This document shows, one piece after another, positions 1 through 50,894 of a stretch of 64,000 nt of DNA. The translations under genes and the position numbers were made by a program. The DNA is taken from positions 30,142,336 to 30,206,335 of the forward strand of contig CM048849.1 of the NCBI GenBank assembly GCA_026545225.1, given 5' to 3'. Numbering within the stretch: position 1 is the first letter of the stretch; each line of letters begins with the position of its first letter. Under the pieces are notes generated by a model. The model worked only from the letters and a program-made list of their open reading frames with translations. It searched no databases and had not been told where the DNA came from. This DNA is from Cornus controversa (Eukaryota > Streptophyta > Magnoliopsida > Cornales > Cornaceae).

Positions 1-799
1 AAATCAATTTGATCAGTTCTTATCATGATTAGCAAGTTAAAAATCTAATCTAAACATCTTTATATTATAGAAAAATGCTATAGTCAGATCACCCTCTTGA
101 TGATTGAATTACACAAAAGTTGCTATAATATTATTAAAATTGATGATTGAAAAACTAAAATATAAAGATGAGAATATGGATCCGGAATAATAGAAATTGT
201 GATGCTAAAATATTTTAGTCCATAAGATTCTAACAACCAGCATAGCAAAAGGGTCATCTGGGAGCAATGGCATACTCCCACCCACTTATATCAAAGGATC
301 TGAGATTTTGTGGCAACTGAAATCGAGAATAAGAATGCAAAAGTGAAATTACAACTTCAACAAGGAAAAATAATTAAAGAACTAGAAACTTGAAAAACAT
401 AAAAATGAAAACTTAAGCAAATCAAGATTCAGATCTTGCCCAAGTCTTTTAATTTCAAAACATTTGGTTGTTTTTATCATAGTAATACCTATAACTTCAG
501 CAATGACTTGTACTAATACATGTAGCCATCAAGACATTCTCTTTCCACCACTTTGCATTCCATAATATCATAGGTTGTGGTGTCTTTATCACAATTTTAA
601 CCCATGTGCCTTTTACCTTCAGCCATATCAACTTAGTACCAACGAAGTATAGAGATGCATGCAAAGTTAAAAGTACTACCAAATGTAAGAGCAGTACAAA
701 GGTAAGAATTCATCAGAAAAAAAAAATGTTTAAGTTCTAATATGTCCAAAGGTAGTTTAAGAAGGGAAATACTATATTACACAAACAAGTCATCATTAC

Positions 800-859
800 C
801 TATATAGTTTCCAAAAGCAGGGCGATGGTGGTCAAATCCCTTTACATATGTCATGCAAC
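800..859 (-). other. Unidentified exon-like block
   Basis: On the reverse strand a 60-bp open block is bounded by an acceptor (TTATTATAG) and a donor (G|GTAATG). It reads CMTYVKGFDHHRPAFGNYIG. I do not recognise the source gene. It lies downstream of the pirin pieces in the same CACTA element, so it may be a third captured fragment or a diverged pirin exon. Another weak candidate lies at 540-640 on the same strand. Confidence 0.25.
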
Positions 860-1130
860 CTATAATAACATCAATATATAACCTATTATATAATTTGTAA
901 AAAATCTTTTTTGAGATTAAAATTATTGACTCTTTGCCACAAGGTCATAATCAATAATTAGCCTATTATTATTTGAAAAATTAGTAAAAAATAATGTGTC
1001 AACTTTTTATCCATCAGTTGCAAATTTGGTGAATATTTTTCATTTTGGTTCCCTGAGTTTTTCTAACTAAAACAAAACACAAGTTGAAAACTTGAAAATA
1101 CAATGCATGAGCTAAAAAATAATTTCTTAC

Positions 1131-1791
1131 ATTTTGTCTTTAAAGGAAAGATTGATCCATAGTTGCAAACTTCTTTGGGTTCCTTGTCCTGCAGGCATTT
1201 CTGAATGAATTATCCCTCTTCCTGCTATTATCCACTACACAAACTCATACAAAAAGTGACAAATCAAGATATATAGTCAATTTATGCATAAAAGCTTCCT
1301 AAATTTTACAATCATTCAGAATAACATGGACCTCAATCAATACCCCTTACCTGCACATCACCGGTTCCGATTGTACTCTTCTGCCTTGCAAAGTCTTGAT
1401 GAGTAAAAGATCCCTAAAATACACAAAACCCATGTTCAGTATCAAATACTACTCCAACCTTTTCGCAATCAAATTTGTAATCATATTTTAACTAAACAAA
1501 GTGTACCTCAAACATATATGTTACAGTCTCAAAACATGTAAAATCAACATGCAATTCAGGATCCAATAAAATTAGTAGAAATAGGATAGACAGAAACAAA
1601 TGAGGATGTTAATTAAATTTGTGTGGGAGATCAGGAAATCCAGTAGGAGGTGATACTGTATGAACAAAGACAGTAAAGTCATATTAAATAAAAATGAATA
1701 TCAAGAGTGCCATGATTAGATAGATGATCATCATAATGTACCTACAAACTAATCCAACATGAGAAAAGGATCCAAATTCTTCAATTCTGGC
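1131..1791 (-). pseudogene. Pirin gene fragment, four exons with introns, inside CACTA element
   Basis: Four consecutive blocks on the reverse strand match the order of plant pirin (a cupin-fold, iron-binding nuclear protein family). Block 1742-1791 reads PELKNLDPFLMLD. Block about 1615-1655 reads SPPTGFPDLPHKF, resembling SPPAGFPDHPHRGF of pirins. Block 1351-1413 contains THQDFARQKSTIGTGDVQ. Block 1131-1234 reads WIIAGRGIIHSEMP and continues to LQLWINLSFKDK. The last two are separated by a 116-bp phase-0 intron with donor CAG|GTAAGG and acceptor TGTGTAG|TGG. Retained introns mean the capture was from genomic DNA, not from mRNA. The first block has a stop where pirins have Glu after MLD, the second decays after PHKF, and no C-terminal cupin half was found, so this is a dead fragment. 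The pirin assignment rests on remembered family motifs but is strong in the last two exons. Confidence 0.82.
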
Positions 1792-2320
1792 CTAAAAAGT
1801 TAAATACCAATCAATTATATATAAGCAATCAATATATGTATGACAGAAAATGATTCCTCTAAGAATCATGTAAAGACACAAGACATAAAATAGAACAGAA
1901 CTTGAATTATTAGCGGAATGAAATTTCAGGCACAGCTATAGTAACAAATTTCAAGACTCAAAAACAGAAAGAGAATCGAAAAAATTAAAAATTGAATAAG
2001 ATTTCAAGGAAAAAACTGAATCAAAACAACTACAATAACAAATTTTAGACAAAAAGGTAGGAGAGAACTAGAAAAATAAAAAATTCTAGACAATGAGCTT
2101 GATGTTACGTTAAGAGTACAGAGGCAAACCACATGAACACATGCTAAACATAATATTTTTTCATCAGGGAACTAAAAATTATAATGAGACATAATATCAA
2201 AAACTTGAACTACAATATGTAAGGTCCTAAGGACATCAAAACAAGACGTAGAACTTAATCATGACTTTGAGAACCAGTGCATTAAAATGATTGAAAATGG
2301 ACAAATGTTGAGAATCGAAC

Positions 2321-2425
2321 CTGGTAGATGAAAGATTCTTGTTCAGGTTTTGAGAGGTTAGAATGAAGAGCATCGACGATTTCTTTCTCGCAATCTTCAG
2401 TCATTTTCAACAGACTCTTCAACTG
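2321..2425 (-). pseudogene. Aldehyde dehydrogenase family 3 exon fragment inside CACTA element
   Basis: A 105-bp reverse-strand block reads QLKSLLKMTEDCEKEIVDA, then LHSNLSKPEQESFIYQ, and ends at a clean splice donor (CAG|GTTCGA). This matches the N-terminal helix region of plant ALDH3 enzymes (pattern SQLKALLKMxxxxEKEIVDALxxDLxKPExEAF), which oxidise aldehydes with NAD(P). Just upstream in the reading direction is GAGGTTTGCAG, which could serve as an acceptor, with an in-frame stop before it, so the original N-terminus is missing. The catalytic Cys and Glu regions are absent. It lies about 530 bp before the pirin fragment on the same strand, suggesting that two host genes were combined in one element. 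Confidence 0.75.
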
Positions 2426-2758
2426 CAAACCTCATCATTCGTAACTCTTCATTTTATGGTTGGGAAAGGAGCTCTAAGCTAGCCCTAGCATCTCGATTGG
2501 CGACGAGAAAGGGATTTCGCCCTGGCGTCCTGATCCCAAGATAGAGGAGGTAGCGAATTGGGGATTTTTAGTAGCTAGGGCTTCATAGCTTTTAGAAGGT
2601 GGGAGATCAACATGGGGTAGGTCTCGACCTCCTTCAAATAGCAACTGAAACATAAGACTTCATTTGAGTGTGTTTGCTATATTGGTACCTTGGCATGGGA
2701 AAATCTCAAAAAATCACTAGCGTAAAATTTTAGCGCCATAACCTCATTTCTTGTAGTG

Positions 2759-3042
2759 GTAGTGCGGGATAAAAAATAAAACTTTTCACCATGGGCTAAG
2801 CCAGTGGTGGAAAGCTCACTTTCCACCACGGGCTTAGCCTGTGGTAGAAACTAACTTTCTACGGATGGGCCCAAGTCAACCGCGATAGAAAATTCTTTCT
2901 ATGACGGGCTACTTAGGCCCGCCATAGAAAGTCACTTTCTACCACGGGCTACACAGGCTCGTAGTAAAAAATCACTTTCTACCACGGGCTACACGGGCCT
3001 ACCATAAAAAGCGTGTCGTTGAAAGTTAAAATTCTTGTAATG
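2759..3042. mobile_element. CACTA subterminal repeat array and terminus
   Basis: Direct and inverted copies of CTTTCTACCACGGGCT and its complement fill this stretch, which ends in GAAAGTTAAAATTCTTGTAATG at 3021-3042. The array is the same family as the right end of the complete CACTA element at 25740-26002, which ends TTCTTGTAGTG; one terminal base differs here. Subterminal repeats of this kind are where CACTA transposases bind. The matching left end is not in the window. Confidence 0.75.
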
Positions 3043-3235
3043 AATAGAGTTAAGCTTATGCGGTATTTAAATGTAAGGGGGGGTGTTTCATTAGGGTTAA
3101 TGGATGGGTTCACCCCTCGGTTCCTGGGAGTCGGGAATCAGGTCGTGACACGAACACTCAGCAGGTATTTTGTCCCCTTCGTAGTGCACTCTTCTTCTCC
3201 TTCCTCACCAACAAATTGTTGTAGAAGAAACCAAA
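3043..3235 (+). mobile_element. LTR scraps: Ty3 LTR tail, then copia LTR piece
   Basis: From 3043 to about 3148 the sequence resembles the end of the forward Ty3 LTR at 41540-41606 (GGGTTCACC...CGTGACA). From about 3149 to 3235 it matches, in reverse orientation, an internal part of the copia LTR family (compare 6672-6765, sharing ATTTTGTCCCCTTCGTAGTGC). Both are short fossils. Confidence 0.5.
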
Positions 3236-4870
3236 TGAAATGCCCCCTACAAATTTCACGCATGAGGTGGCCAGTCTCACACATAAAACATTAGGGATAC
3301 CTACAAGTGATAGCAAATAAGCATAGACTACAAGAATAAAAAGAAAAGATTTATAAATGCTGAAAGGAAAGTCTAACTCAAATAATAAATAACATTAAAT
3401 AAACATAATACTAGTATGAAAAATACAATCTTGAAGTCCTGTAACTCAAGGACCCCTTCAACCAAAAATCATAAAAGTAAAATACTTTATGAAAAGATCT
3501 AAGTCCCTACACTAAAGTCTGGTAAGGAATAGATAACCGCCACGCTCTTCGAACTCCACGTTCTAACGTTGAGGTGAAAACTGCCTAGGACCTAAAATAT
3601 CAACAAAGTGGGTTAAACCCACGAGCAAGTTCCCTCTACTATAACCCAATTAGAGAACAGGTAAACATACCCTCTACATGAGGGACAATAAAAAAAATAG
3701 ATATATATACATATCATTTCCTTATTTAACCTCTGTCCCAAAATAGAACCATCCTCCACACCATCCCAATCCATCAAAAATAAATATATATGTATCATTT
3801 CCTTATTTAACCTCTGTCCTAAAATAGAAACCATACTTATTAAATGAAATAACTTATTAATATTTGGCAATCTTGACATGCCTCCCTTGTAAACATATTA
3901 AGTAACCTACTATATAATTGGCAATCCTCATATGCCTCCTTTATTATCCTTAAATACCCCATTGGTAATCCTGACATGCCTCCTAGTAATCCTCACATGC
4001 CTCCCCAATTAACCTTGAATATCTTATTGGCGATCCTAACATGGCTCTTAGCAATCCTCACAAGCCTCCCTAATTAACCTTAAATACCCTATTGGCAATC
4101 TTGACATGCCTCCCTAATTAACCTTAAATACCCTGTTGGCAATCATGACATGCCTCCCTAATTAACCTTAAATACCTTGTTAGGTATTGGCAATCTTGAT
4201 ACACCCCCTAGCAATCCTCCCTAATTAACTTTAAATACCCTATAGGCAATCCAGGCATGCCTCCCTAATTAACCTTAAATACCTTATTAGGTATTGACAA
4301 TCCTCACATGCCTCCTGACAATCCTCACATGCCTCCCTAATTAACCTTGAATACCTTATTTGGTGTTGGCAATCCGTATATGCCTCCCTTATAACCTATT
4401 TAAATACCCTATTGGCAATCCTGACATGCCTCTTGACAATTCTCACATGCCTCCCTAATGAACCTATTTAAATACCTTATTGAAATACCAATTGCTTATA
4501 AATCTACACTAAGTGTATTTATTACACCTTAGGTGTAAAATGACCAAAATGCCCTTTAATTATTTAATGTATCCTCCCGACCTCAGTTTTTGATTCTGAA
4601 AGCGGTTTTGCTTATGAAATCAATTCCTTATCTCTTAAAATATTTTAAATGATGTAAAACCAAAAAAATAAACTTTATCAAAAAAATATCTAGTTTCTAG
4701 GGTCCACCCGACCCACATCACAAGCCCCGTCAACCCAAAAATCCCAAATTTAGCCAAATGATCCGAAAACTTTCCAGGACCCTTAAACAAGTCCCCAAGC
4801 ATGTATGTAATATTTAAAACATGCATAAAATTATTTATAATCAATTAAACAATAAATGATGAATAAAAAG
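3236..4870 (-). mobile_element. Ty3 chromovirus-type LTR fragment, reverse strand
   Basis: The segment 3240-3700 follows the left part of the LTR at 34690-35130 closely, sharing for example ATATCAACAAAGTGGGTTAA and GAACAGGTAAACATACCCTC. The remainder is LTR-like with the GTGGGTCGGGTGGACCC motif near 4700. It is an incomplete old LTR without an adjoining coding region. A duplicated block of about 75 bp lies at 3690-3835 and a minisatellite at 3880-4490. Confidence 0.6.
3880..4490. repeat. Minisatellite, units of about 45-65 bp
   Basis: About ten degenerate tandem copies of a unit built from TTGGCAATCCTGACATGCCTCC and TAATTAACCTTAAATACCCT. Unit length varies because some copies lack the second half. 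A few related units occur in the LTR at 35180-35330, so the array expanded inside an LTR. Confidence 0.85.
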
Positions 4871-7711: not shown

Positions 7712-7839
7712 TGTAACACCCTTAAACTATGATTCCTTTTTGTCTTCGTCTCATTAGGATTCAAAGGTAATTTTTGGACTTTGTAGCACTATAAGTGTAG
7801 TTATACATATGGATATATATATATATATATATATATAGA

Positions 7840-7873
<34 letters not shown>

Positions 7874-10800
7874 GTTATTACATAGATATGTAGTATTGGT
7901 TTCTCTGATGCATGTATTTGAGTTGCCAAGTGGGATTTCTTTGACTAGCCTTGACTGGTCTAATATTGCTACGCAACTCTCTTATATTTATGTGTTTGTG
8001 ATAGAAAAGGAAAAAAACAAAAAAAATACAACAAGTGGCACAAACTGGGGTGCCTGGGCGACAGGTGCCATCCGGTCAGCCTTGTAAATTGTGGGTAGTA
8101 TACTAGAATAATTACCCCAAGCTTCTCACAGAAGCTTTGTTGCTTTTCAAAATATTAGATCTGTAAGTATAGGCTAAAGAAAAATAAAGGTTGTAGAGGG
8201 TCCGACAGAAGAGAGAGAAAGAGAAAAAAAAAGGCAAAACTAGATAGAGAAAGAGAGAAGAAGAAGAAGAGAAAAAGAGAAAGGGAAGAAGAAGAGAAGA
8301 AGTTAGGCAAGTTCATTCTTGCCAAATTTTCTTATATATATATATATACTTAGGTTTAATCCTATGTAGAATCTTAGAATGATGCATGGGTGTACTTCAA
8401 TCCCATGTTTCCTTTAGCTAATTACCAAATATGTTTTCAAATAGTGTTATGTGCCTACATGCATCCGTTTATGTAAGAATAAGAAATAACATGTTTCATT
8501 GATGGTTTAACCTTTCTTGGTAGTTGTTGGTAGCAGTATCCTATTTCATAGGAACTTAGTTATGGGTCTTTAAAGAAATAGTGCATTTCTTTATGTATGG
8601 TTGACTGGAATGTGTAGGCACTTTTTATGCAAACATGTATATAGGATCTATCAATTTACATGAAGGTTCACTTATCCATATCTCTGCCCATTTGATTTAG
8701 ATTAATCCTTGCATAAATTTTGTTTTTGGTTAAGATTAGGTAAGAGCCTGATATCATTATATATGGATGTGAGAAGTTTTGTATTAGAATGTATACAATG
8801 TTTGGATATGTATATAAATATATACATATACCATAGTTGGTGGTCCTCTCATGGTGGCCATCCAGGGTGCTTCGGTGAGGTGTGGTGGTGCCATAACTGG
8901 TGGTTGAGGTTTGGCAGTTGGGTTTCGGCTGTTGGAGCATTTGTGCATGGCTTATTGTGTGGGTTATCAGCTAATGAAGGCTAGGCAATTTGTTGGTACC
9001 TTGAATGATGGACACGGCTGAAAATGGGTCTTCGGAATGGTGCTGCTGGAAGTTGAGTGTTGGGTAACCATGGTGGTAGTTCGGGGTGGTCAAAATTGGC
9101 TAGAGAATATGGTGGGTGGCTCGGCAAATGGTGGTTGTTCATGGTGAGTTTCACGGCTGGGTTTCTCCTGGTGGTCTTTGGCTATGACTTTAATTATGGT
9201 TGAAGAGGGTGAAAGCAAGATGGCCAAAATTGGGTCTTTCTTGAGCAGCTAGGTGGTGTCGTGAGGTGAGGGCCTTGCATGGGTTCGGCCATAGGAGGAA
9301 GGTTTTCCTTGGAAGCTATGATGGTGGTTAGGTTGGGTGGAGGAGATGGTGGTGGCTGGGAATGTCTCCGCCATGGAGCTGAATGAGATTGCTGGAGGTT
9401 CAAGTGTGGATTAATTAGTGGGCTAGCATATTGGGTTTGATTGTGGCTGGTTGATTTGGGCTGGCTAGCTTAAGGATTTGCTTGATTCATTGGGCTCTAA
9501 ATTGGGCAGTGTACTGTCATGGTTCAAACATTGGGTATTGTTTGATGTTTGGTTTAGCTTAGGAAATGGATCTTTCCTGAAACTAAAAGAATTTTTTTTT
9601 GGGGCTAAAGTTAGGAACTTGGAGAAAAATATTTTTAATGCTCCATAATTTATGTAAAGATTTCCGAAATTATATGTTTATGCCTAATAGAGCTTGTTAT
9701 GTAGAAATACTTGGTCAAAATGATTAAAACCCGACGTGTGATGTTTGAGAATAATGAACGCACACAACTCGCTCATTTAATTTATTAAATGTGAAAAAAA
9801 TTTAATAAATTATAAAAGATTATATGTTGGTATAAAGAATGCTCGATTTCCTTTTGTTTCAATTTAGTAAAAATTGGAGAAAAATATCCTTTTAGCTCTA
9901 AAAATTACAAAAAATCCTAGAATGGTATATTTTGGCATAATAAACTTAATTATGGTAAAAGAGTTAAGTTTAGAAAATTTTTAAGTGGCAAAATCCTAAA
10001 GTGATTAATTAATGTGAGTAGTAATCACATTAAAAGAATGTTTGATTTATTAAATGTTAAAAACGTTTGGTAAATCTTAAAGGCTTAAAATCGCGAAAAT
10101 TAGTTAAAATTTTCTTAAAGATGAATTGTGTGGTGTAAAAGTGAAGAGGTAGTCTGGGATTAACTCTTTTAAAAGATTTCTTAGGTATGGTCAGGGACCT
10201 ACCTATTGGGTGTACACTAGCCATTTGTTCATTGGGTGAAGTGTGCCCTTATTGTGTGGACGTGGTCCGGGACCATTTCGGTGAGTAGACGAACAAGCCC
10301 AGCCACATGTGCGAGATTCCTTAGTGTGGGACGATGCGATGTGCACCACTTGTTAGCTAAGCATGCCATCTACTTGAGGGGAGCCCAGGGCTAATGTGAG
10401 GTTATTAATGCTAAGTTTATCTAGACGATTTGCTTAATAAGGAATTGTTGAGAATACAGTTCCTGTGTGTGAAAGAAATTGTGGATATGATAACAAACTA
10501 TAGTATAATTATCATAAGAAAATTTTCAGAATCTAATCAATAAAGATTGTTGTACGAGTCCCTATATATAGGAATTTAAGGCAAGGTCAATTTGTTGAGC
10601 AATGATAGTGATTTGCAGTTCTTGCTGAGCTCACCTCATTTTATTTTTAGGTACGAAGTGAATGGAGGCACGGTACAAGACAGTGGAGGCCATTTACATG
10701 TAAATCACTTTGGCTTGTAATTAACTCTTGTTCTACAAAGTTGATACTCAAGATGAGCGATGAGGTCTCTGGATAAATTTTTTTTGTAAGGGATGATCTA

Positions 10801-10934
10801 GATGATCATATTTTGATTGTAAAATATTTTTATATTAGATGAATGTATAGTATGATAGATGTAGTTTTTCAAGTCCCGCACGAAATTCAAGTACCGAACT
10901 AGAGTTTCTGGTATTTAAATTTTGGGGCGTGCTA
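7712..10934 (+). repeat. 5' LTR of the Ty3 element (3.2 kb)
   Basis: Starts TGTAACACCCTTAAAC and ends TTTTGGGGCGTGCTA, typical of chromovirus LTRs. Inside are an (AT)n/(GT)n tract at 7812-7873, a purine-rich GA tract at 8200-8305 and a GT-rich stretch at 8830-9420. It is about 600 bp longer than its partner, mainly because about 540 bp (roughly 9417-9940) have no counterpart there. Open frames in it are chance. Confidence 0.88.
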
Positions 10935-11104: not shown

Positions 11105-12858
11105 ATGTCGAGAGCTGGTAGAGGACATGGTAGACAAGGTGGACGTGATGGCATTGGTTGTGGAAGAGGCGGTCGTGGAGAGGAACAGATGGAGGAGGTA
11201 GTTCAAATGTCAAACCCAGATGTGGGACAAGGTCCAATCATTACCCTAGTCTAACAAATAAAGAAATTGGGAGCGGTTGACTGCACAAATGCTACAGATC
11301 CACTCGATGGAAAAAAGTGTATAGAGGACATGGAAAAATACTTTGAGATTATGGACTGTACCGAGGTACAGTAAAGAAGGTTAGCAATTTTTTACTTATC
11401 CAGCGATGCCCGACAATGGTGGAAATCTGTTATTAGGAGTGTCAGGGTGTCACACACACGCACTGGGATAAGTTTAAGAATCGGTTCTATGACAAGTATA
11501 TTCCACGTGCAATGAGGGATGGAATTCCAGCAGAGTTCATACACCTGGAGCAAGAAACTATGGCATTGATAGTGAGTCAATATGAGGCAAAGTTTGTAGA
11601 ACTCTCTTAATTTGCTCCTTATATGGCTGTAGATGAGGAGAGTCGGGCTAGAAGATTTGCAGAGGGATTGACTCCTAGCATAAGGAGGCTAGTGATTAGT
11701 CAGGGGTTAAATAGTTACGTAGAGGTCGTAGAGTGTGCTATGAGGATCAAACAAGATAACCTTAGATATCAACAAAGGAAGGAGCATAAAGCTGCAGAGA
11801 AGGAAAAGAGGAAAATTAGTTTTAACTCACAACATAATTTAAGGAGGCAACAGCAGCAACAACCTCCAAAAGATATGCAGAGCTAAGCGAGGTAGAGAGA
11901 TAGGCAGGATTGGCAAGTAGTGAAAAGACAAAGAGTGGGTGGAGGTGAGCAGTCCATAGCTATGGTACCAGCTGCACCTCATAACGCTCAGCCTCACCAG
12001 TTCCATGGACAATGCTACAACTTTCAAGAAAAAGGACACATAGCCCGCTACTATACTAAACCATGTCAAGAAGGTCAGTAGAGGGGTTCAGCACCACAGC
12101 AGTAGGGTAGAGCAAAGGTTGATGATGTATACCAAAAAGTTGGGTAGGATGTTGCACCACCTGCAATGGAAGGTACATTTACTGTTTATGGCAATATAGC
12201 TAGAGTGTTATTTTTTTCAGATTCTACGAAGTCATTATTTCATTATCATTGGTAAATGCACTTCGATTAGAACATGAAAGTATAAATAGTGATGTACCCA
12301 TTACAACTTCCCTTGGACAGTCAACGACACATGATAGGGTGTGTCATACTTGTCTTATTATGATTATTGAAAGAACTTCTGGTTGACTTGATGATATTGC
12401 AAATGAGGGCATATCATTTTCACCTATCTAGTTTTGGGAATTTGGTAAGCTAGACCTGAGGTTGAAGTTTAGGTAGAGTTATGATAGTTAAGATGTAATA
12501 GATTCTAGTTATAGGAGCCTAGGACTTTGAAAAGTTTTGAGATAGAAATTTCATGTGAAAAATGGAGAATTGATTGTGAGTACCAATTGAGGGAACCAAA
12601 GGTATGAGGACAAGGAAGACAAGTTGTCGAGGTTGAGCTAATAAGGGAAAATGTCCTGGCCGGACATTTTTCTTTAATTAGTGCTTTTCTTATAATGTGT
12701 CAGGTCCAAGTAGTTATGGAATTGATTGGTTAGATGTTGACAAGTGAGAAAGAACTATAGTCTAGGTAGTAAGTATTAGAAAAGTAGGACTTAGTGATAT
12801 GTTAGATCTATATATTGTCTCTCGTGGGATACAAGGTTTTAATTTGCTAATTGGTAAT
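11105..12858 (+). pseudogene. Ty3 gag and protease-like fossil
   Basis: Starts with a Gly/Arg-rich leader (MSRAGRGHGRQGG). A gag domain follows (ATDPLDGKKCIEDMEKYFEI, then SSDARQWWKS, then RARRFAEGLTPSIRRLV at about 11643-11693) and a zinc-knuckle-like stretch near 12010-12050. A weak protease-like segment lies at about 12160-12260. The part up to 12858 before the nested copia element has no further recognisable domain. Broken in several places. Confidence 0.75.
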
Positions 12859-14051
12859 TGTGAGATATATAATTGTAATTGGCATATTTCGGTGACCAAA
12901 ACTTGATTGATCAAGTTGTAATTTTTGTATTATTTTATGCAATTGATCTTCGACAACTTCGAGCTAATATTCAAGTGCATGGAAGCAGATAAATCACGAA
13001 GAACACCATATAGTACAAGTAAGTATGGGGAGGACACTCTGCACTTTATATTTCTGAGCCTATTTTGAAAAACCAAGGTTTAAATGGAAAATATAGGGTT
13101 TTTCAAAGTAAGACCGGTCCCCAATATTTAGGACCGGTCCAACATTTCTTGGCAGTTTGATTTCTAAAGGTTTTTACAAAGTCCCACCGGTCCTATTTAT
13201 TTGGCACTGTTCCCACTTGTCCTGTTCCAAATAGGAAATAACTTTTAACAAAAATTCTGATTCTTATTGGGTTTGAAACTTCTAGGAGAGTTCTATTTTG
13301 GTATTCAACTTCTTTTTCAAGTAGAATTAGGACTCCCTTGACTATATATACGTATCTATATTTCCACTACAGAGTGAGCCTGAAAAAATATATTTTTAGA
13401 GAGAGAAAGTATATATAGTATAATTACGGCTATATATTTTTAAAACACACAGCTATATTTCACAAGTGATATTTAGGACGGTGTTCTACTTCTGATTAGC
13501 TGTTCAGAGACTGCATCAAATCATATCCTGATTAGAACATTGGATTGATGGTTCTTTGCTTTCTTACTTGCTGAGGAAGACAGGTGACTAAATCGTACTA
13601 TAAAGGGAACGAAATACTTGCTGAGTATTATTGTTCTTCCAGTAACCTTTCTGTAAGGATCGTGATGTTAGCCAAAAGTCCGCAGTAGTTGGACGAGTTA
13701 TCACAATCGTAAGCCTGAGGTGTTCTGCATCAGATTCTTGACAGAGTGAAGAGGGGTATGAGTCTGAGACAAAGTCTGCTGTACTTTGCTTCATTATAGT
13801 GGATTGGTTTCCCGAGACTTTTTGCCTCCGTCTGTGATTTTTTTCCACCTTGGGTTTCCACGTATATCCAGTGCATTCTTTTCTTTACTTGCACTTTAAG
13901 TTATTTGCTTGCTTTAATTGTTTAGTTAATTATTAATGGAACTTAAAATTGAATTAATTTAAAAAATTAAGCAAATGAGGAAGTGATCCTTTTCACCCCT
14001 TCTAGGTTTTAGAGTACTTTTCACAACCGCTTTCGCACCGCGCAACTCACA
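12859..14051 (+). repeat. Copia 5' LTR
   Basis: Begins TGTGAGATAT and ends CAACTCACA. Contains two ACCGGTCC blocks at about 13112-13142, one in the palindrome GGACCGGTCC. ATTAGTATTAGAGC (14052-14065) directly follows and is a worn tRNA-iMet primer site. Confidence 0.9.
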
Positions 14052-14142
14052 ATTAGTATTAGAGCAGTGTTCTCTAATTTATGAGTAGTTCCTTACGAAG
14101 TATTTTTAAAATCAAAAGTTATATTTGTTTTAAAAAATTCTC

Positions 14143-16106
14143 ATGGAATCTAGTATGAAAGAGGGTAGATCGATTCAGCGATCTCCTTTGTTTGATGGTT
14201 CAAATTATACTTTTTGGAAGTCTCGTATGAAAGCTTTTTTGAAATCTCAAGGAAGGAGAGTTTAGATGCCTGTAGAGAATGGCTATAAAATTCCTACCAC
14301 TACCACTGGTAATGGTGATGCTGCTGTGACTGCAAAAAAGGATAACGCAACATAGTCTAATGTTGAGCATGAAGATGCTAATAATAACAATAAGGGTTTA
14401 TATGCTATATTTAATTTTGTTGTTCATTCTGAATTTGCTAGAATTTTTTCCTATTCCACTTCGAAAGAAGCATGGGATATTTTACAGGTAACTTATGAGG
14501 GTACCACCAAGGTAAGGAAATATAAGTTACAAATAATTGCCATTAAATTTGAAACAATTAAAATGGATGAAGATGAGATATTTTCTGATTTTTATTCTAC
14601 ACTTAATGATATTGTTCAAAGTAGTGTTAACCTTGGTGAGAAAATTCCATCTTTCCAAATTATCAGAAAAATCATGAGATCATTGCCTGATAGGTTCCAA
14701 ACTAAGTTGGAAGCCTTAGATTAGAGCAGAGATGTATATTCAATGAAGGTGGTTGAGTTGGTTAGATCAATTTAAACTTTTGAGATGAAATATCCAAAGT
14801 TTCAAAAAATAAAAAATTTGGTTTTAAAAACCTCAAAGACTTCCAACTTCAAATTTGTCAAATATTTCAAAATCTGAAATTAAAAAAATTGAAAGTTTTG
14901 AATATGATTCAGATAATGATGTTGCACTCCTTGCTAGGAAATTTAGAAAGATTCTTGAATATGAAAAGGTTAGAAATTTGGTAAAAGGAAATCCTTCTAA
15001 ATTCCGGAATCAAAGCTCATCATCCAAAGGTAAGGAAAGGAAAAAGAAAGAAGATGACTCTAGGGAGACTGAGCTTACTTGTTGGACATGTGGTGGTAAA
15101 GGTCATACATCTAATCAATGTCCAAGTCCTAAGAAAAATAGCTTTAGTGCAAAGAAAAGTTCAAACACTAAAAGAAAGTCATGAAAGCTATTATTTATGA
15201 GTTTGAGTCTTCTAACTCTGATAGTGATTCTTCTATTGAGAATGATTCTCTTCCTTTTGTTTCTTTATTGAATGATGATACTGATAATGAATCTTCTTCT
15301 GATGTAGGTGAAACAGAGGTGTACACTACTCTCAATCAAATAGGGTCTAATGATTCAGAAGTTGAGTAGTCAGATGTAGAACCATGTTCAAACAAGCTGC
15401 CAGAACTCTTTGAGAAATTGCTAGAAGCTTATAATAAGAAATTTGAGAAGCTTAAGCAAGAAAAATCTAAGGAAGAAAATTTGAAGAAAATGAATGAAGA
15501 TCAATTGAAGTTGATTGAATAGAATAAAGCTAACATTCTGAATCTTCAAGGCAAAGTTAAGTTTCTTGAAAGCGAGGTAAGTCAAGCTATTTCTGCCAAA
15601 GATTCTCTTATTGCTAGAATTAATTTCTTGAGTCTGAATTGAAAAAATGACGAGAGAAATTAATTGCTTTTACTTCTAGACAGATTAAGCTTGATAGCAT
15701 GATTACTGTTGGAAAGCTTGTAGGAGATAAAATTGGATTAGGTTTTGTAGGGTCATTATCTAAGGGAAAAACTATTTTTGTTAAACTTAAGAATTTGATT
15801 GTGTCTGAACCCAAACCAAAGCCTCAAGTTGAGTCTTTGCATGCTAATGTTGTGTCCAATGTGTTTTTTTGTTCTTTTGTGGTAAGAATGGACATAGTCA
15901 ACACTATTGCTATAAAAAGAAAAAACATTCTAATTATGATTTTCATGTGCATAATTCTTTTACTAAGAATATGGTTCATGCTAAAAAAACCACATTATTG
16001 GAGCAAACCCAAAAATTGTCAAGCTAAAAAGAATTCAAACAAGAGAAATGATGTTTTTGTTTCTCCACAATACTTTCCTGATAAATTGCATGTTAAAACT
16101 ATCTGA
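14143..16106 (+). pseudogene. Copia-type gag fossil
   Basis: Begins MESSMKEGRSIQRSPLFDG and continues with NYTFWKSRMKAFL, the usual N-terminus of plant copia gag. SKEAWDILQVTYEGT follows near 14465. A CCHC zinc knuckle CWTCGGKGHTSNQC lies at 15080-15121. An acidic stretch with SDSDSSIEND follows at 15190-15245, then a Lys/Glu-rich coiled region and a second knuckle-like stretch near 15870-15915. Its relative lies on the reverse strand at 4870-6246. Broken in several places. Confidence 0.8.
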
Positions 16107-17016
16107 ATGAAAAAGGAAGATTTGTTGAAGTTTGTGCCTGTTGATATAATGGGATTTATTCTTAATAGATCTTTTGGTGCAAAACTCTCTAACTAGGTCA
16201 TTAGGACTTTGATGATAATGGACTAAGCTTATGTTCATTGTTTGTTTTCCATTGAACCATATCTTTTAGGTTAGGATAGGTTTTGTTTATTTTTAGTAAT
16301 AATCATAAGAGATTATGTTAATCATATTTTTCTGAGAAATAATGTGAATTCTATGTATTTCTTTTTAATTTCACTTTGATTTGTGAATGCATAATTGGGA
16401 CACTTAGTTTGTCAAATAAATGAAGTACTTGATTTTATGATATAGATATTAATAACTAATTCGCGATATTTATTTCTTTTTAGAGGTAAATCTTTTGAAT
16501 CTATATAATTTGTGCACTAGTCCAACTCTGAGAGAATTGATTGAAAACTAATGTGAAATTGACTAGAGTGTAATGTATAAGTAATTTTGAGCACTGGTTG
16601 CACTTCTACAGGTTCTGAGGAACCGAGAGAAGTTGGACCGGTCCCCAAAAATTAGGACTGGTCGCACTCAGTGATTGTCGAGATTTTTGAAAATCTGCGC
16701 GCGCACTGTGGTGCCTTAAGTCACACACTCTCACTCTCACTTATACACACAAACCCACTCTCACTCAATCTCTCTAACCCTCAAGCATTCTTAACACACT
16801 CCAACTCACCAACTCACACACACTCTTCTTCTATTTTATTTCTTTGTGGATATTGATTATTGGAGGTTGAGATTATCTATATTTGGAGGTATTGATTTTT
16901 GTGGTGATATTTTGCAAACAAATACCTTTGAAACATGGGGATTTTCTTGGTGAACACCAATTGTTCGACACTTTGTCTAAATCGAACTTTTAACTCTATT
17001 TTTTATTCCATTCGTT

Positions 17017-17916
17017 GTGGTATTGATGGCACGCAAATGGGGACGTAATGAGGCGTCAACAAGTGCAGATAACCGCATTGTGTTTAGTAGGAACATGTTT
17101 GAAGATGATTTTAACTACAACACTTTCGTTAACATCATTGGATGTCGTGCTATGAGGATAGAACGGAAAGTGAATCTTGTGGCAATAAAACAAGAATGGA
17201 AATTAGATTTTGTGCGATATTTTGAGGATAATGGTTGGGAGTCTTTATGTGATCTTTGGGAGATTGTCAAGCCGGACATGGTTCGATACTTCTATGGCAA
17301 TATCTTGGATGACCTAACTTTTGTGACCAAGTGTTATGGCATTCGTGTTAAGGTTACCAAGGATACAAGTGCCAATATATCGGGAGACCCAGAGATTGAA
17401 AATGGCATAGTTTTGTCATATCAAATTGAGGATCTAAATTGACCGACCATGGATGACATGATTAGGGAGTTATGCATACCCAATGCCCCTAGGCTTATTG
17501 ATAGGTTGCCTTCACTCTATATCACACACAATGTGTCGGCATTGAATTTAGTGGTCTCCTACAACCTTGATCTTCATGATCGTAAAGGTAATTTGATCAA
17601 AAGTCGAGCTAAGTTACTATATCATATTGTTCGAGAGGATCCTATCAATCTTCTTGTAACAATCATGCATACCATGATTCTAGCTAATCGACACTCTAGG
17701 TCATCATCAGCCTTACCCTTCCCACAGATTATCATGGCTATTCTGAGAGGTGCTAGGGTTCTTATTCCTGATGGAGCAGATGTTGAGAGACCGAAAGGAA
17801 TAATTGATACTACTGCAATTACTCATTTATTCAACAAAAAAGAAAAGGATAAGAAAGCTTATGAGCTCAGTCAAGGAGCTGGACAAGCTGTGTCTGGGGG
17901 TTGTGGAGTCTTCTAA
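17017..17916 (+). pseudogene. Plant-specific 'transposon protein' ORF in copia-like element
   Basis: The translation contains MVRYFYGNILDDLTFVTKCY, IRVKVTKDTSANISG, MDDMIRELCIPNAPRLIDRL and LLVTIMHTMILANRHSRSSS. This is the pattern of the widespread plant family often annotated as 'putative plant transposon protein', found in non-autonomous LTR elements. Function is unknown. It stands where copia elements normally have pol. The region 16110-16990 before it is AT-rich with one more ACCGGTCC block (about 16638) and no recognisable coding sequence. Broken about once. Confidence 0.75.
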
Positions 17917-18571
17917 CTTCCTACGACTGACACACAAGTGACAACCAATCAAATAAACCAAGTTCTCAGGTTCATTCAGCAAGGGTTCAATCGCTTACAT
18001 GCTAGAATAGACAAGCTGGACCATGCTGTATTTGATGAGGCTACTGATGATGCAGAAGATGATTAGACTTTAGGTCTTGATATCTTTTGTTCTAGACTAT
18101 TTTTGACTTATTTACCCCTGATGTCTAGAGTATTTATTTTTTTTTATGTTTTGTTCACTCCATCAACTGATATGTTTTGAATATTTATTTTTATCAGTGA
18201 TGATGATTATTTTTGCTTCATTATTATCTTATTCTCTCTATGTGCTTACTTAATTATCTGCGTATATCATTCTCCTTGGAATTTCTTTGTCAATTTGTTA
18301 CAAAAAGGGGGAGAAGTATTTGTCAGGTATTTTGAATTAAGGGGGAGCATTACAGATTTATGTTTATATTTCTTTATTAAGCTTTTCACAAGTTGTGTTG
18401 TTTAAGTAATGTGCAGCTACAAATTTTTCTTCTTCTAAACCGTCTTGAACACACAAGTGAAGCTTTTGTTGATCAGCTTTTTATTTCTATGTATTTTTGA
18501 GGAGCATTATTATCTAATTTTTCCAATGGGTTAGGTTATAATTGTCTAAGTGGTTTTGTCACGAAATTGCC

Positions 18572-18583
18572 AAAGGGGGAGAT
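18572..18583 (+). other. Polypurine tract of copia-like element
   Basis: AAAGGGGGAGAT immediately precedes the TGTGAGATAT start of the second LTR, the standard plus-strand priming position. Confidence 0.85.
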
Positions 18584-19775
18584 TGTGAGATATGTAATTG
18601 TAATTGACATATTTCGGTGATCAAAACTTGATTGATCGAGTTTTAATTTTTGAATTATTTTATGTAATCGATCTTCGACAACTTCAAGCTGATATTCAAG
18701 TGCATGGAAGTAGATAAATCAGTAAGAACACCATATAATATAGGTAAGTATGGTGAGGAAACTCTGCACTTTATATTTACGAGCCTATTTTGAAAAACCA
18801 AGGTTTAAATGGAAAATGTAGGGTTTTTCAAAGTAGGACCGGTCCCCAATATTTAGGACCGGTCAAACTTCTCTCGGCAGTTTGGTTTTTGTAGGTTTTT
18901 ACAAAGTCCCAGCGGTCCTATTTATTTGGCACCGTTCCCATTTGTCCTGTTCTAAATAAGAAACAACTTTTGACGAAAATTCTGATTCCTATTGGGTTTC
19001 AAAATTTTAGGAGAGTTCTATTTTGGTATTCAACTTCTTTTCCAAGTGAAATTTGGACTCCCTTGCCTATATTTATGTATCTATATTTTCTCTACAGAGT
19101 AAGGCTGAAAAATATATTTTTAGAGAGAGAAAGTATATACAGTATAATTAGGGTTATATATTTTTAAAAACACACATTTATATTTTATGAGTGATATTTA
19201 GGATGGTGTTCTACTTCTGATTAATTTTTTAGAGACTACATCAAATCATTCGCTGATCAGAACATTGGATTGTTGGTTTTTCGCTTATTTGCTTACTGAG
19301 GAAGAAAGGTGACCATATTGCACTACGAAGGAAATGAAATACTTGCTGAGTATTGTTGTTCTTCCAGCAACCTTTCTGTAAGGATCATGATGTTAGCTGA
19401 AAGTTTGCAGCAATTGAACGTGTTGTCGCAATTGTAAGCCTGAGGTGTTCCGCATCAGATTTTTGACAGAGTGAAGAGGGGTGTGAATCTGAGACAGAGT
19501 CTGCTGTACTTTGCTTCATTATAAGATTGGTTTTCTGAGGCTTTCTGTCTCCCTCCATGGTTTTTTCCCACCTTAGGTTTCCACGAATATCCGGTGCATT
19601 CTTTTCTTTACTTGCACTTTAAGTTATTTCCTTGCTTTAATTGTTTGGTTAATTATTAATTGAACTTAAAATTGAATTAGTTTAAAAAATTAAGCAAACG
19701 AGCAAGTGATCTTATTCACCCCCCTTTAGGTTTTAAAGTACTTTTCGCAACTGTTTCTGCACCATGCAACTCACA
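18584..19775 (+). repeat. Copia 3' LTR
   Basis: Co-linear with 12859-14051 over its whole length with scattered substitutions. Ends CAACTCACA and is followed by the GTAAT duplication. Confidence 0.9.
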
Positions 19776-20361: not shown

Positions 20362-20389
20362 TATCACTACAAAAAAAAAAGCTTTTTAC

Positions 20390-20665
20390 GGCGGGCAAAG
20401 AGAGCTTTTACCACGGGCTTGGTCCGTCATGGTATCCGGTGTCGTAGTTGCTGAAGGACTTTCTACCACGGGCTTAGCCCGTAGTAGAAAAGTACTTTCT
20501 ACCACGGGCTGAAGGACTTTCTACCACGGGCTTAAGCCTGTGGTAGAAAGTATTATTTTTAACCACGGCCCAGCCCGTGGTAGAAAGTATCCATTTTCTA
20601 TAACGTACTCAGACTGTGGTAGAAAGTGTACCTTCTAACACGAGCTGAGCCCGCCATAGAAAGTG
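20390..20665. repeat. Left subterminal repeats of CACTA element
   Basis: About six copies of the ACTTTCTACCACGGGCT unit in alternating orientation, GC-rich against an AT-rich background. Confidence 0.88.
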
Positions 20666-21125
20666 TTTTTTTTTAAAAAAAAATATTTTCCTTCTTATAT
20701 AATTTTTCCAACCAAACTCCACCTAAAGCCTGCACAACCAATATCACTCACCAAGCCTCGCAATCAAACAACACAAATTTACACACTTCAATCTCAATCT
20801 GCCATGATCCATAGAATCCTTACAAAAATTCAACTTAATTTTATATAAATAAAGAATTCATCCACAACCTACAGAGCTCAATGGAAGATTTTGTGATACT
20901 GCATTAGAAAAATCATAAATAGAGGCCAGCTTTGAAACCCTCAAGTGCCAATATTTTAGAACTACATGTTAAAGAAGCACTATGGAATTAAATAGGAGTC
21001 CTAAGTAGCAATTTTAGCTGGAGCTATACAAGAAAAAAATAAAATAAAATAAAATGAAAAAGGAACTAATACTAGGTTGAAATAGAGCGTACCTACAACA
21101 TGTGATTAATGCTTTTCAATCAAAA

Positions 21126-21185
21126 TTACAATACGGTTGTACGTTTCTCTAAGCACAACTGGAACATTCTTTCGGTGTATCTTGT
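21126..21185 (-). other. Unidentified exon-like block
   Basis: On the reverse strand an acceptor-like TTTTACAG near 21195 is followed by an open stretch EVTRYTERMFQLCLEKRTTV. It could be another captured exon, but I do not recognise the family. Confidence 0.2.
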
Positions 21186-22300
21186 AACCTCCTGTAAAAT
21201 ATTATAATAATAAGAAATATATATGTAAGCATAGATGTCATACTTAAATGCATAATAAATTGAAATCAGTAAGCAAAAGAGGGGAGGGAAAGAAAACAAA
21301 ATTTTTCTTTCTTTCATGGAACCTTACATTTAGGTTCAAACATTTATTATACAGTCAAAAGTGAATTAATGATGTTCTCATATGATAACATTTGAAATTT
21401 GGAATTGAGCAAGTACCATAGATCTTTCTAAAGAGACTACAGTATAATGCAAAGCAGAAGATGCAGGCAAGTAGTGAGAATAAAAATTAACAAATTACTA
21501 AAAATGTCATTGAAAATAATAATTTTCTCATTAAAACAAAAAAAATACCATTAACTATTAATTGTGATACACTTGCTAAAAAAAACTATTAGGTCATATC
21601 TCAATCAATTTCACACTAATATGGCATCAACTATTCAATGATGACAAACTTAGATATCAAATGCATAACATAAAGATGTAGCCTATATCCTTAACTCAAT
21701 TTAGCAGACATTAATAATATGCAATTTCTAGAAATGATCACCATGAGACCAACCTCAGCTAGGTCAATTTATAAATACTAGAATAATATTGATAGTAGAA
21801 TCACTTAAATGAGGCAACATAAGTCAACAAAATTAGCATCAAGTATACAATTCAGAGTGCAGGTGCCTGCAAGGTTTAAGGTAAGTGAAACTAGTTCAAA
21901 TGTATCTAATTTAATTGATTGAAAACTATTATAACAGATCAAAACTTTTCAAAGTGTTCAAAGGCAGCACATAACTTTTCTGCAGGGTGGGTTTATGGTT
22001 TAAAAACATAAAATAACTCTGCTGAATTTTATGTATTTCAATGCACACATTGGGCAGTCATTTCTTACATCATATGTAGGACAATATAGAATTTTCTATT
22101 TGATATATTTCATGTACGGTTTACCAAATTTATTTTCAAAATTTTTTCTTCATTTTTCTTCTTAGGGTTTGCCAAATTTCTTTTTGGAAGTTTCTCTTCT
22201 TGCTATTTGTTGTTTGGAAGGATGCATATTCATATTTAAAGATTCTACTTCATTAAATTAAAATAACAGAGAGTCTGCAATGGAAACTCTATGTTAGTAG

Positions 22301-23221
22301 ATTAAAATACACCAAGAAATTTATATAGTTACACATAGCATTGAAAACAACAACCAGTTGCAACTTTTGTTAGTTTCAACTTTTTTTAATGTTAGTTACA
22401 CGTACCTAATGCTGATAGATCAGTATTGTGGTTGTAGTTTTACACTCTTCTCTACTAGAAAGCGTAGTCAAGCATTCTTTGCACAGACAACCTTTTTCTT
22501 TTGTTGTTCTGTTTCTTCTGTACATTGTGTTCATTATTTTTTTTTTTTTCTTTCAATTTATTTTTGTTCTATTTAGTTGATAATAGTTATTAGTTTCCAT
22601 TACATGTCTTCTCTTGTGGGTTTTAGTTAAAATTTTGTTTTTAATGCACAAGGCCCTATTAAATAATGTACAATTTGACTTGTTCAAATTTCTATGCAGT
22701 GATTTTTTATTTTTTTTTATATTTTCTTCTTCTTTCTATGAAAGATAGTTGATATTTATTGGATGGTGAATTTTTAGTGTTTGCTAGTTAGCATAAATAC
22801 TTATTAGTTATTGCCTTTCATATGTTTTTATTATTATTATTTTTTTCATGTATGTTTCGTGATCTTGAAGCGCAATCCTGAAGTAGTTAATACAAACAAA
22901 AAATAAAAACAAAGTTAACACCAGCCCTAGAATCCAGTGGGATTCTTATTCTGGACAACAAAATGAAAGTGAAAAAATTATAATTTTAATTAAATTGGAC
23001 GATACTCCAGCTCTTTTATTAAATTTTTGTCCTAGTACTATTTGAAGTTGTTACGAAACAGGAATATAAATTACTAAAAATCATCCTAATCAATATGATA
23101 ATTCAACTAATTGCAAGATTAAAATGCAACTAAAATAGAGAAAATGAAACATTAAAAAAAGTTGAAACTAACAAAATAATATATTAAAATACACCAAGAA
23201 ATTTATATAGTTACACATAGC
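22301..23221. repeat. Inverted-repeat structure flanked by a 39-bp direct repeat
   Basis: A 39-bp direct repeat (22301-22339 and 23183-23221, beginning ATTAAAATACACCAAG) encloses a perfect 29-bp inverted repeat (22365-22393 and 23148-23176, beginning TTTTGTTAGTTTCAAC). The interior of about 750 bp is T-rich on the left and A-rich on the right, with no coding region. It looks like a small inverted-repeat element or a segmental rearrangement inside the CACTA element. Confidence 0.8.
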
Positions 23222-25012
23222 TTTAAAAAGATGAGAGAGAGCAAGAGGAATAATAAAGAGTTTTGAGTGTTGCGAGATACCTTCAAACTTAGAGTTGGAG
23301 GGGAAGAAATAATTTTTCCCAGATTATATTTGTGAGAAATGGCTAAAATTACCGGATGCTTTAAAAATTAATCAATGTACTTGCTCCAACTAACCAGAAA
23401 AGTAGCTTTGCTAAGTAGTCCTAGGAAGTGCCTATGATATCATGGAATTCGTCACCACAACTTTGGTAGTTCTCTGCGCTCCTTATAGCTAAATCTCCCA
23501 AAAAAAACTAGAGAAAGTATCATTTTTAAAGAAACTCTTCAATATGTTTTGAACAAGTTCGTGAATAATTTCCTCCACCTCTAATGATGATAACTAAGAT
23601 AGTTCAGTCACCTATTGAAACAAATTATAATTTCTGAAAAATCCAACTTCAAGCAGAGAGGCAATAGTCACATGAAAAAAAATTAAGGATCATACCATAT
23701 CAAATTCCAAGGACCTTAAATACTCCAACAAATAATTGTTACTTTCTCTAATATGCTCAATTCTCATATGTTTCTGCTTTTGAGAATTTAGTTGAACAAG
23801 CCTATAGATTTTTCAGCAACCTATAGAATATGAAGGCAGGATGTGATCTCTGGTCTCTAGTATAGAACTTATAGATTTTACAAGCAGATCATATGACACC
23901 TTTAAAATCCTAAATTCAATTGATTGCATGTTTTCCTTGGAAGTATAAGTTTTAGTTTCTTATTAACCCCTAGATATCTGGTAAAGATCTTGAAGAAAAT
24001 TTTTTACATGCTCTATAAAAAAAACTTAATACAGTGGGAGAAAACAATTCTCACTAGTAACTACTTGAAGCTGAATGAATTGAAAAGTTTCGAACACATT
24101 TATTTATCAAGGATAAATCATAGTTAAGGTGAGACCTTTATCATAGCTAATCTGGCTAACAATGTTGCTTAAAATTCATGGTGTTCAAGGTCAATAATTA
24201 CACGTTCAAAATAAACAGGTGAAAATTAATTATTTGAATGTGATGATTTCTATTTTTTTTCATTTTATTGCAAGGGCTTCTTTTTTAATTAATAATCATA
24301 AGTTTTACTAAAGTGGTGGTCTTTTTGTTGTTCTGATTCTAAAAACAGCCCAGGGAACTTCAGAAGCTTATTTGAGGTCTCTTTGTTCAAATTCATTCAA
24401 CAATATACTTGGAATCACAAAATGATATAGAACATTTCTATTCCTAAGAATCCAAAATACACCTACCCTATGAACTCTGTTTTATTGAAACAAAAATTCA
24501 CATGACAAATGTAACAGATGAACAATTCCAAGGGACATTCATTTGGTATGAGAAAAGAGTGATATGTCTTATTACTATCTAGATGAAGAAAATAAATTTG
24601 TAAAGCTCGTGATCTCTATATTTTAAGAACATTTAAATAACCTGCCTGCATTTAGCTTCTTCAAAATCTAATACATTATCAATAATTTGTAAATAACAAC
24701 TTAAGCTTCATAGCTATGTAATCCCAAAACCTTTAATTTCACCAAAACTCATTGACAAGTATTGAGTCAAATACAAACTTTTCAATTTCATAACTGAGTT
24801 TTCTTGCTCTTAAATTTTCAATTCAGTTTACCATTTACTAAATCTAGTTTCACATCAATTTTGCAATCTAAACGTGGAAGATGTGAGTGTGTCCTAAGTG
24901 TGTCTTGGTAGAGAGAGTAAAATCTTAACCTTCTTAGATGTGGATAACTCTAATTCTGGCTGCTGAATGTAGCTGACAACCTCAGGCAACAAATCACTAA
25001 TACTCTAAAAGT

Positions 25013-25625
25013 TTACTCTCTCCTCATCTTCAATATATCAATACCAACAACCTCACTCTTCTCATGCTTTACTTCCCAAACGTTATTCTCCTGCAAAAAA
25101 CTTGACATTTCTGAACTCTCCGATGATAGATGGAATTTCCTCATCAATGAATTTTGATATTCCGCGTTCCACAAAGTGTAGCTAACAATTTCAACAATCA
25201 AATCATTTTCTATAACAATTCAATTTCAAGCACAAATAAGAACAACATATACACACATATATGAGTGAAATGAAGTAGAGAAGAAGTCTTTACCTGGTAA
25301 TTATAGAAGAGATGAGGAGATGATACAGAGGACGCTTTGAAACCCTAATCGTGATGGAAAATTGATTTGACGAGAGCAATCCTAGCATTGTTGATATGGT
25401 CTGTTTCATAGAGTCCTTAGTGGAATCAAAAAACCCATTGGAGATAACAGAAGTGTTTAAAGGTTCAATTTTTTTAAGCATATCGGCGATTACAAAGAAT
25501 TCTCGATTGAATCCAGATTTTGTGGTGGAGACAAAGTCGTCCGAGACTTCACCATCGTCGACGCCAGAAACCAGGTAGTTAACGGCGACCGAAGGATGGC
25601 TCTTGATGACTATGGCGAGAAACAA
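25013..25625 (-). pseudogene. DUF760 (UV-B-induced protein family) gene fragment, two exons, inside CACTA
   Basis: Exon 25294-25625 contains MLKKIEPLNTSVIS and DSMKQTISTMLGLL and ends ...LLISSIIT at donor AG|GTAAAG. A 112-bp intron (25182-25293, acceptor TTGTTAG) leads to exon 25013-25181, which reads YTLWNAEYQNSLMRKF. Joined, the reading frame stays open across the splice. The motifs match the conserved core of the plastid DUF760 family (At3g17800-like; pattern AMKQTISxMLGLLPSxQF then GYTLxNAEY). A stop follows ILKMRRE. Beyond it, 24930-25003 reads SDLLPEVVSYIQQPELELST in another frame up to a donor-like GTTAAG, perhaps a decayed later exon. The N-terminal 40 residues are not recognised. It could be transcribed but is unlikely to give a working protein. 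Confidence 0.8.
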
Positions 25626-25734
25626 TAGTCAAAAAAGGTACAGAGAGGGTTAGGGTATCAGAGGTGTTTGGGTAGTGTTTGGTAATGAGAAAGAATTTGT
25701 TTGCGGGAATCAAAAATAATAAGTTCTCTAAAGA

Positions 25735-25985
25735 AAAGTAACACCTTTTATCACGGGCGTAGCGCGTGATAAAAATAAAACTTTCCACCACGGGCTAAGC
25801 CCGTGATGGAATGAGACTTTCTACATCGGGCCCAAGTAGACCGTGGTACAAAATTCTTTCTATGGCGGGCTACATAGGCCCGCCGTAGATAGTCACTTTC
25901 TACCACGGGCTACACGGGCCTGCCGTAAAAAATTACTTTCCACCACGGGCTACACGGGCCAGCCGAAAAAGTCTGTCGTTGAAAG
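25735..25985. repeat. Right subterminal repeats of CACTA element
   Basis: Alternating copies of ACTTTCTACCACGGGCTACACGGGCC and its complement. Homologous in order to the array at 2759-3020, showing that the two elements are one family. Confidence 0.88.
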
Positions 25986-26005
25986 CTAAAATTCTTGTAG
26001 TGTAT

Positions 26006-30830: not shown

Positions 30831-30862
30831 ACTTGAACATAGAGGAGAGAGAAATCAAAGGA

Positions 30863-46100: not shown

Positions 46101-46112
46101 CACCCCCAAGCT

Positions 46113-47720: not shown

Positions 47721-47726
47721 TTCCAT

Positions 47727-49310: not shown

Positions 49311-49314
49311 CTGG

Positions 49315-50859: not shown

Positions 50860-50870
50860 TCAAATAGATA

Positions 50871-50889: not shown

Positions 50890-50894
50890 AAAAT

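What the first reader, a model, noticed from the sequence alone, without database searches (positions are those of the whole stretch)
1131..2425. Two different host genes captured side by side in one CACTA element
Within 1.3 kb the reverse strand holds a spliceable ALDH3 exon (LKSLLKMTEDCEKEIVDAL) followed by four pirin exons in the right order (..LKNLDPFLMLD, SPPTGFPDLPH, THQDFARQKSTIGTGDVQ, WIIAGRGIIHSEMP). Introns and splice sites are kept, so the capture was from genomic DNA. A read-through transcript could fuse an ALDH3 N-terminal helix to a cupin core, or act as antisense or small-RNA source against both parent genes.
Basis: partly seen in the sequence, partly recalled or inferred. Interest (0 to 1): 0.8.

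Follow-up and report, generated by a model that had tools for sequence, protein, structure and literature searches.

The report
Gene scraps inside a plant CACTA transposon
A plant jumping gene of the CACTA kind appears to have picked up broken pieces of two, probably three, ordinary host genes with their introns, a rearrangement of a kind already described in soybean, maize and other plants.

Summary
The gene pieces are real. On the minus strand, four pirin exons (1791-1742, 1655-1507, 1413-1351, 1234-1131) lie in order with canonical splice sites. Joined, they match solved pirins at E 5e-30; unjoined pieces match too. Upstream is part of an ALDH3-type exon (about 2470-2321), recognised against a recalled Arabidopsis ALDH3H1 (E 9e-6); it does not begin at 2425. 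A third piece, from a DHHC palmitoyltransferase (860-780, E 0.006-0.008), is likely but weak. All are degraded by stops, lost cysteines or an insertion.

The transposon claim is half shown. A perfect CACTA terminus (2747-2758) sits where a second CACTA element's subterminal repeats (2759-3042) break off, so one element probably inserted into another. The left end lies outside the window. A complete CACTA at 20365-26002 (TSD TAT), related to the second element, carries a DUF760 gene fragment.

A normal ALDH3-pirin fusion protein is not supported: reading frames disagree, with stops. Only exon-skipped splicing would be in frame. Closest precedent: soybean Tgm-Express1. A new member of a known kind.

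The parts
2747..2758 (-). Right terminus of inner element A: CACTACAAGAAA, exact; presumed 3-bp target-site copy GTA at 2759-2761 (other copy not in window)
   Evidence: Exact match; 0.0175 expected in the window, both strands together; lies where homology of element B to its relative stops in the alignment
2759..3042 (-). Right end of a second CACTA element B: subterminal repeats built on TTTCTACCACGGGC and a mutated terminus CATTACAAGAAT at 3031-3042; element A sits in it
   Evidence: 9 unit matches at 3 mismatches or fewer here, 0 in 1-2758; 2772-3046 is 81% identical to 25734-26006; 2759-2826 aligns with 25759-25824
2321..2470 (-). Partial ALDH3-type exon ending at donor CAG|GTTCGA; two adjacent TGA stops after KSYE
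   Evidence: tblastn of recalled ALDH3H1, E 9e-6; boundary
1742..1791 (-). Pirin exon A, PELKNLDPFLMLD*FV, with a TAG stop
   Evidence: no Pfam hit alone
1507..1655 (-). Pirin exon B, VSPPTGFPDLPH ... ETVTYMFE, split by about 86 inserted bases (about 1535-1620, ends uncertain by a few bases) that hold a stop
   Evidence: halves have no Pfam hit alone
1351..1413 (-). Pirin exon C, GSFTHQDFARQKSTIGTGDVQ
   Evidence: Pfam E 0.035 alone
1131..1234 (-). Pirin exon D, WIIAGRGIIHSEMPAGQGTQRSLQLWINLSFKDK(M), donor GTAAGA
   Evidence: Pfam E 2e-5 alone; tblastn E 1.8e-8
780..860 (-). Probable exon piece of a DHHC palmitoyltransferase, GCMTYVKGFDHHRPAFGNYIGNDDLFV, the Cys of DHHC replaced by Arg and a second expected Cys by Tyr
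   Evidence: Pfam PF01529 E 0.0061 and 0.0076, under the curated cut-off; 0 of 9 script shuffles hit; not found when the whole frame was scanned; no PDB hit
20365..26002 (.). Complete related CACTA element, termini CACTACAAAAAA and CACTACAAGAAT, TSD TAT on both sides, subterminal repeats at both ends
25296..25484 (-). DUF760 gene fragment inside the complete CACTA; a second, sub-cut-off DUF760 stretch at about 23510-23731
   Evidence: Pfam PF05542 E 3.2e-10, 6.5e-11 and 0.0056

Best explanation
Positions 1-2758 are the right part of a non-autonomous CACTA transposon (element A) of the Pack-CACTA kind. It holds genomic pieces of an ALDH3-type gene, a pirin gene and probably a DHHC palmitoyltransferase gene, all on the minus strand with introns. 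Element A inserted into the subterminal repeats of an older CACTA element (B, right end 3042). The pieces are passengers that decayed by point mutation and an insertion, and most likely have no protein function. Shown: the identity of pirin and (less firmly) ALDH3, splice sites, decay, a CACTA terminus at 2758 and its place against B's repeats. Inferred: that one element encloses all pieces, the capture route (neighbouring insertions re-mobilised as one, as proposed for Pack-CACTA), and loss of function.
For: Pirin. ALDH3. Pieces are partial: PRN1 residues 33-131 only, and no other part of PRN1 or ALDH3H1 has a hit better than E 1.5 elsewhere in the window. Terminus exact and at the break of B's homology. 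No B-type repeats left of 2759 and no plus-strand terminus within 2 mismatches in 1-2746, so, unless B's left part was lost, A's left end is beyond position 1. A related complete CACTA in the same window with TSD TAT carries another gene fragment. Precedent: Tgm-Express1 (PMC1947982, abstract and two sections read) and Pack-TYPE elements (PMC8903248, abstract and two sections read).
Against: A's left terminus and left TSD are outside the window. A's last 259 bases hold no repeated 10-mer and only one self-palindrome, whereas CACTA elements usually have subterminal repeats; B and the complete element do. The longer alignments of B with its relative start at 2772 in another register of the repeats; only the shorter alignment starts at 2759. 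No second copy of 1-2758 is in the window at E 1e-4. ALDH3 identity rests on recalled reference sequences. The parent genes of this plant could not be searched.
Confidence: 0.75

Rival explanations
1. Helitron capture: a rolling-circle element picked up the pieces, and the CACTA terminus belongs to something else.
For: Helitrons carry captured pieces of many host genes (PMC13317346, passages); that they often do so in one orientation with introns is recalled.
Against: No Helitron-like 3' end (perfect GC-rich hairpin then CTRR-T) on either strand of 1-3100 by a simple scan; the break at 2758/2759 carries an exact CACTA terminus. The scan is crude and the left part is missing.
Confidence: 0.08
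2. The pieces are ordinary decayed host pseudogenes (segmental duplication or repair patchwork) and the CACTA terminus is a remnant next to them.
For: The pieces are decayed; the left terminus is not seen.
Against: Unrelated gene pieces, pirin and ALDH3 each lacking the rest of the gene, packed in 1.7 kb on one strand and closed by a CACTA terminus; a related complete CACTA nearby has its own gene fragment.
Confidence: 0.15
3. The block is expressed and makes a chimeric ALDH3-pirin peptide by skipping pirin exons A and B (compatible with the best explanation, not an alternative origin).
For: The ALDH3 donor and the exon C and D acceptors are all phase 0; ALDH3-C-D reads open for 83 residues from an internal Met. 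Even a transcript with all exons keeps a 58-residue open reading from an internal Met at the end of exon B through C and D. Tgm-Express1 exons are spliced in many combinations (PMC1947982).
Against: With all exons the ALDH3 reading enters pirin out of frame and stops; the start is an internal Met after two stops; exons C and D are a small part of the pirin cupin (55 residues); no expression data.
Confidence: 0.04

Closest known systems
Tgm-Express1 (soybean CACTA; PMC1947982, abstract, Background and one Results section read)
   Same: CACTA element with several unrelated host gene pieces that keep exons and introns
   Different: Tgm-Express1 is 5.7 kb, carries five genes, sits in a gene intron and its splicing was shown by RT-PCR; here one end only is seen, the genes differ and nothing is known of expression
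Pack-CACTA / Pack-TYPE elements (PMC8903248, abstract and two Results sections read)
   Same: Non-autonomous TIR elements with coding DNA, in maize often from more than one locus; [quoted passage not shown]
   Different: Here a CACTA element appears nested in another, decayed one; capture route not observable
CACTA elements of Chenopodium with gene fragments (PMC8978399, one section and passages read)
   Same: Gene fragments (Neprosin in one element, AP2 in three) within CACTA-like elements
   Different: One gene family per element, 754 to 1342 bp from the TAD domain of the element; no transposase seen here

Membership tests
CACTA element (inner element A) | Terminal inverted repeats beginning CACTA | tested here: inconclusive
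   Right terminus exact at 2747-2758; left terminus not in window
CACTA element (inner element A) | 3-bp target-site duplication | not testable with these tools
   Right copy would be GTA at 2759-2761; left flank outside window
CACTA element (inner element A) | Subterminal repeats | tested here: not met
   No repeated 10-mer in the last 259 bases of A; shorter or diverged repeats not tested. Hence 'CACTA' for A is said as likely, not as established membership
CACTA element (complete relative 20365-26002) | CACTA termini, 3-bp TSD, subterminal repeats | tested here: met
   Termini, TSD TAT/TAT, repeats at both ends
CACTA element (complete relative 20365-26002) | CACTA transposase (autonomous elements only) | tested here: not met
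   No transposase in Pfam over three minus frames of 20640-25730 and three plus frames of 20640-24500; plus strand 24501-25730 not scanned. Non-autonomous elements lack it
Pack-CACTA | Host coding DNA between the two CACTA termini | tested here: inconclusive
   Coding pieces inside the one visible terminus of A; met for DUF760 in the complete relative
Pirin | Pirin N-terminal cupin sequence | tested here: met
   only about residues 33-131 of PRN1
ALDH3 | Sequence match to class 3 ALDH N-terminus | tested here: met
   tblastn E 9e-6 with a recalled plant sequence; direct Pfam and PDB searches silent
ALDH3 | Catalytic and NAD(P)-binding parts of the enzyme | tested here: not met
   With three recalled full ALDH3 proteins, no hit outside 2470-2318 better than E 0.91 in the window
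DHHC palmitoyltransferase | DHHC motif | tested here: not met
   DHHR in place of DHHC; a decayed piece at most. Family match only Pfam E 0.0061-0.0076, under the curated cut-off
Helitron | 3' hairpin and CTRR end | tested here: not met
   None in 1-3100, both strands, simple scan

The most novel reading that the evidence does not exclude
The locus is a halfway stage of multi-gene capture: a gene-carrying CACTA lodged in the terminal repeats of another, so that outer and inner termini could be used in turn to mobilise a larger composite, and its exon-skipped ALDH3-C-D transcript is made.
Probability: 0.05. Interest if true: 0.5.

Novelty: new member of a known kind. Interest (0 to 1): 0.25.

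Why it matters
It adds a likely multi-gene capture by CACTA elements in an unidentified plant, with a complete gene-carrying relative about 17 kb away. It is useful as an example for how Pack-CACTA elements gather genes, but does not change what is known.

Tried and rejected
Fusion of an ALDH3 helix to a pirin cupin core: rejected for the normal exon order (phase 0 donor to phase 2 acceptor, stops); kept only as an exon-skipped possibility. ALDH3 exon starting at 2425: rejected, homology runs through. A short CACTA lying wholly between the genes and 2758: rejected, no B-type repeats to the left and no left terminus within 2 mismatches in 1-2746. Two plus-strand CACTA pentamers in 1-2758 (1233 and 2715) lack the rest of the terminus. 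Open stretches at about 490-655 minus and 2477-2653 minus: no Pfam hit; one frame of the first also searched in PDB, only E 0.058; unassigned. DHHC piece in PDB: no hit. Search of viral contigs for the subterminal repeat: 0 hits. The window's own genome is not held, so sister copies and parent genes could not be searched. Paper searches: transposon + gene fragment + pirin + aldehyde dehydrogenase, 0 papers with all four; CACTA / gene capture / pirin, two of three terms, 44 papers, 15 listed, none of those listed with all three; Pack-CACTA, 18 papers, 15 listed; CACTA + captured + host gene fragments, 10 papers; a further search gave unrelated papers only among the 8 listed.

Full report
What is there. 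The window is plant-like DNA with LTR elements and two CACTA ends near its left edge; its genome is not held. On the minus strand between 2470 and 1131 lie an ALDH3-type exon piece and four pirin exons. The pirin identity is firm: joined exons match Pfam Pirin at 2.3e-23 and solved pirins in the PDB at 5.4e-30, and unjoined evidence agrees. Exon A and the two halves of exon B gave no Pfam hit alone, but tblastn with a recalled Arabidopsis PRN1 places them. All eight pirin exon boundaries have AG or GT. Only PRN1 residues 33-131 are covered; no other PRN1 segment has a hit better than E 1.5 in the window.

The ALDH3 piece is less firm. Direct Pfam and PDB searches are silent, but Pfam is silent for the recalled Arabidopsis N-terminus too. 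That recalled ALDH3H1, which the PDB search confirms to be an aldehyde dehydrogenase of class 3 type, finds 2470-2318 as its best place in the window at 9e-6. ALDH3F1 and rat ALDH3A1 (recalled) align in the same register only weakly. Homology stops at a donor, CAG|GTTCGA.

A third piece. At 860-780 the minus strand reads GCMTYVKGFDHHRPAFGNYIGNDDLFV, a DHHC palmitoyltransferase match at E 0.0061 to 0.0076; 0 of 9 shuffles hit, but the match vanishes in whole-frame scans, is below the curated cut-off, and gave no PDB hit. I hold it as likely.

The transposon. CACTACAAGAAA occurs exactly on the minus strand at 2758-2747; 0.008 and 0.009 such matches are expected on the two strands. From 2759 to 3042 runs an array of TTTCTACCACGGGC repeats (9 unit matches with up to 3 mismatches; 0 in 1-2758) ending in CATTACAAGAAT. 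Its part 2772-3046 is 81% identical to the right end of a complete CACTA at 20365-26002, which has TAT on both sides. The longer alignments start at 2772, in another register of the repeats; a local alignment of 2730-2830 alone starts exactly at 2759. So an element (A) ending at 2758 most likely interrupts the subterminal repeats of another (B). A's left end is not in the window. A's end region has no repeated 10-mer, a point against a typical CACTA.

The complete element carries a DUF760 fragment on the minus strand near its right end (E 3.2e-10; 6.5e-11 and a second stretch below cut-off at 0.0056) and no transposase in the frames scanned. This shows that a CACTA element of this genome carries a host gene piece, independently of the finding.

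How it works. The most likely reading is passive: a Pack-CACTA moved by a transposase made elsewhere, its cargo drifting. The pirin reading has a TAG in exon A and an insertion with a stop in exon B; a full ALDH3-A-B-C-D transcript enters pirin out of frame and stops, though a 58-residue open reading from an internal Met remains over the end of B, C and D. Of six exon combinations tried, ALDH3-C-D (83 residues) and ALDH3-D read open in the pirin frame. Expression and small RNAs could not be tested.

Known kind. [quoted passage not shown] abstract and two sections). In maize, Pack-TYPE elements often hold more than one locus and Pack-CACTAs the greatest number; re-mobilised neighbouring insertions are the proposed route (PMC8903248; two sections). 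Chenopodium CACTAs carry gene fragments (PMC8978399; one section). The finding is therefore a new member of a known kind.

Noticed in passing
20365-26002: Complete CACTA element with TSD TAT and a DUF760 gene fragment near its right end
   Followed up: partly
12857-19775: Probable copia-type LTR element: repeat pair 12857-14051 / 18582-19775 at 88% identity, gag and zinc knuckle inside, and a Transposase_32 match (E 1e-10, just below cut-off) at 17443-17913
   Followed up: partly
44594-52142: Second direct-repeat pair, 94.8% over 800 bases and further blocks, probably LTRs
   Followed up: no
7712-10929 and 26512-29125: Direct duplication of about 2.6-3.2 kb in two blocks at 86.5% and 88.1% identity, nature unknown
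   Followed up: no
30830-34280: LRR receptor-like gene: LRR domains in 30830-32848 by Pfam; the following open frames look like a kinase by eye, not searched
   Followed up: partly
about 490-655 minus and 2477-2653 minus: Open stretches inside element A that may be further captured pieces; no Pfam family found
   Followed up: partly
3921-4453: Imperfect tandem array of units like GCAATCCTGACATGCCTCC
   Followed up: no
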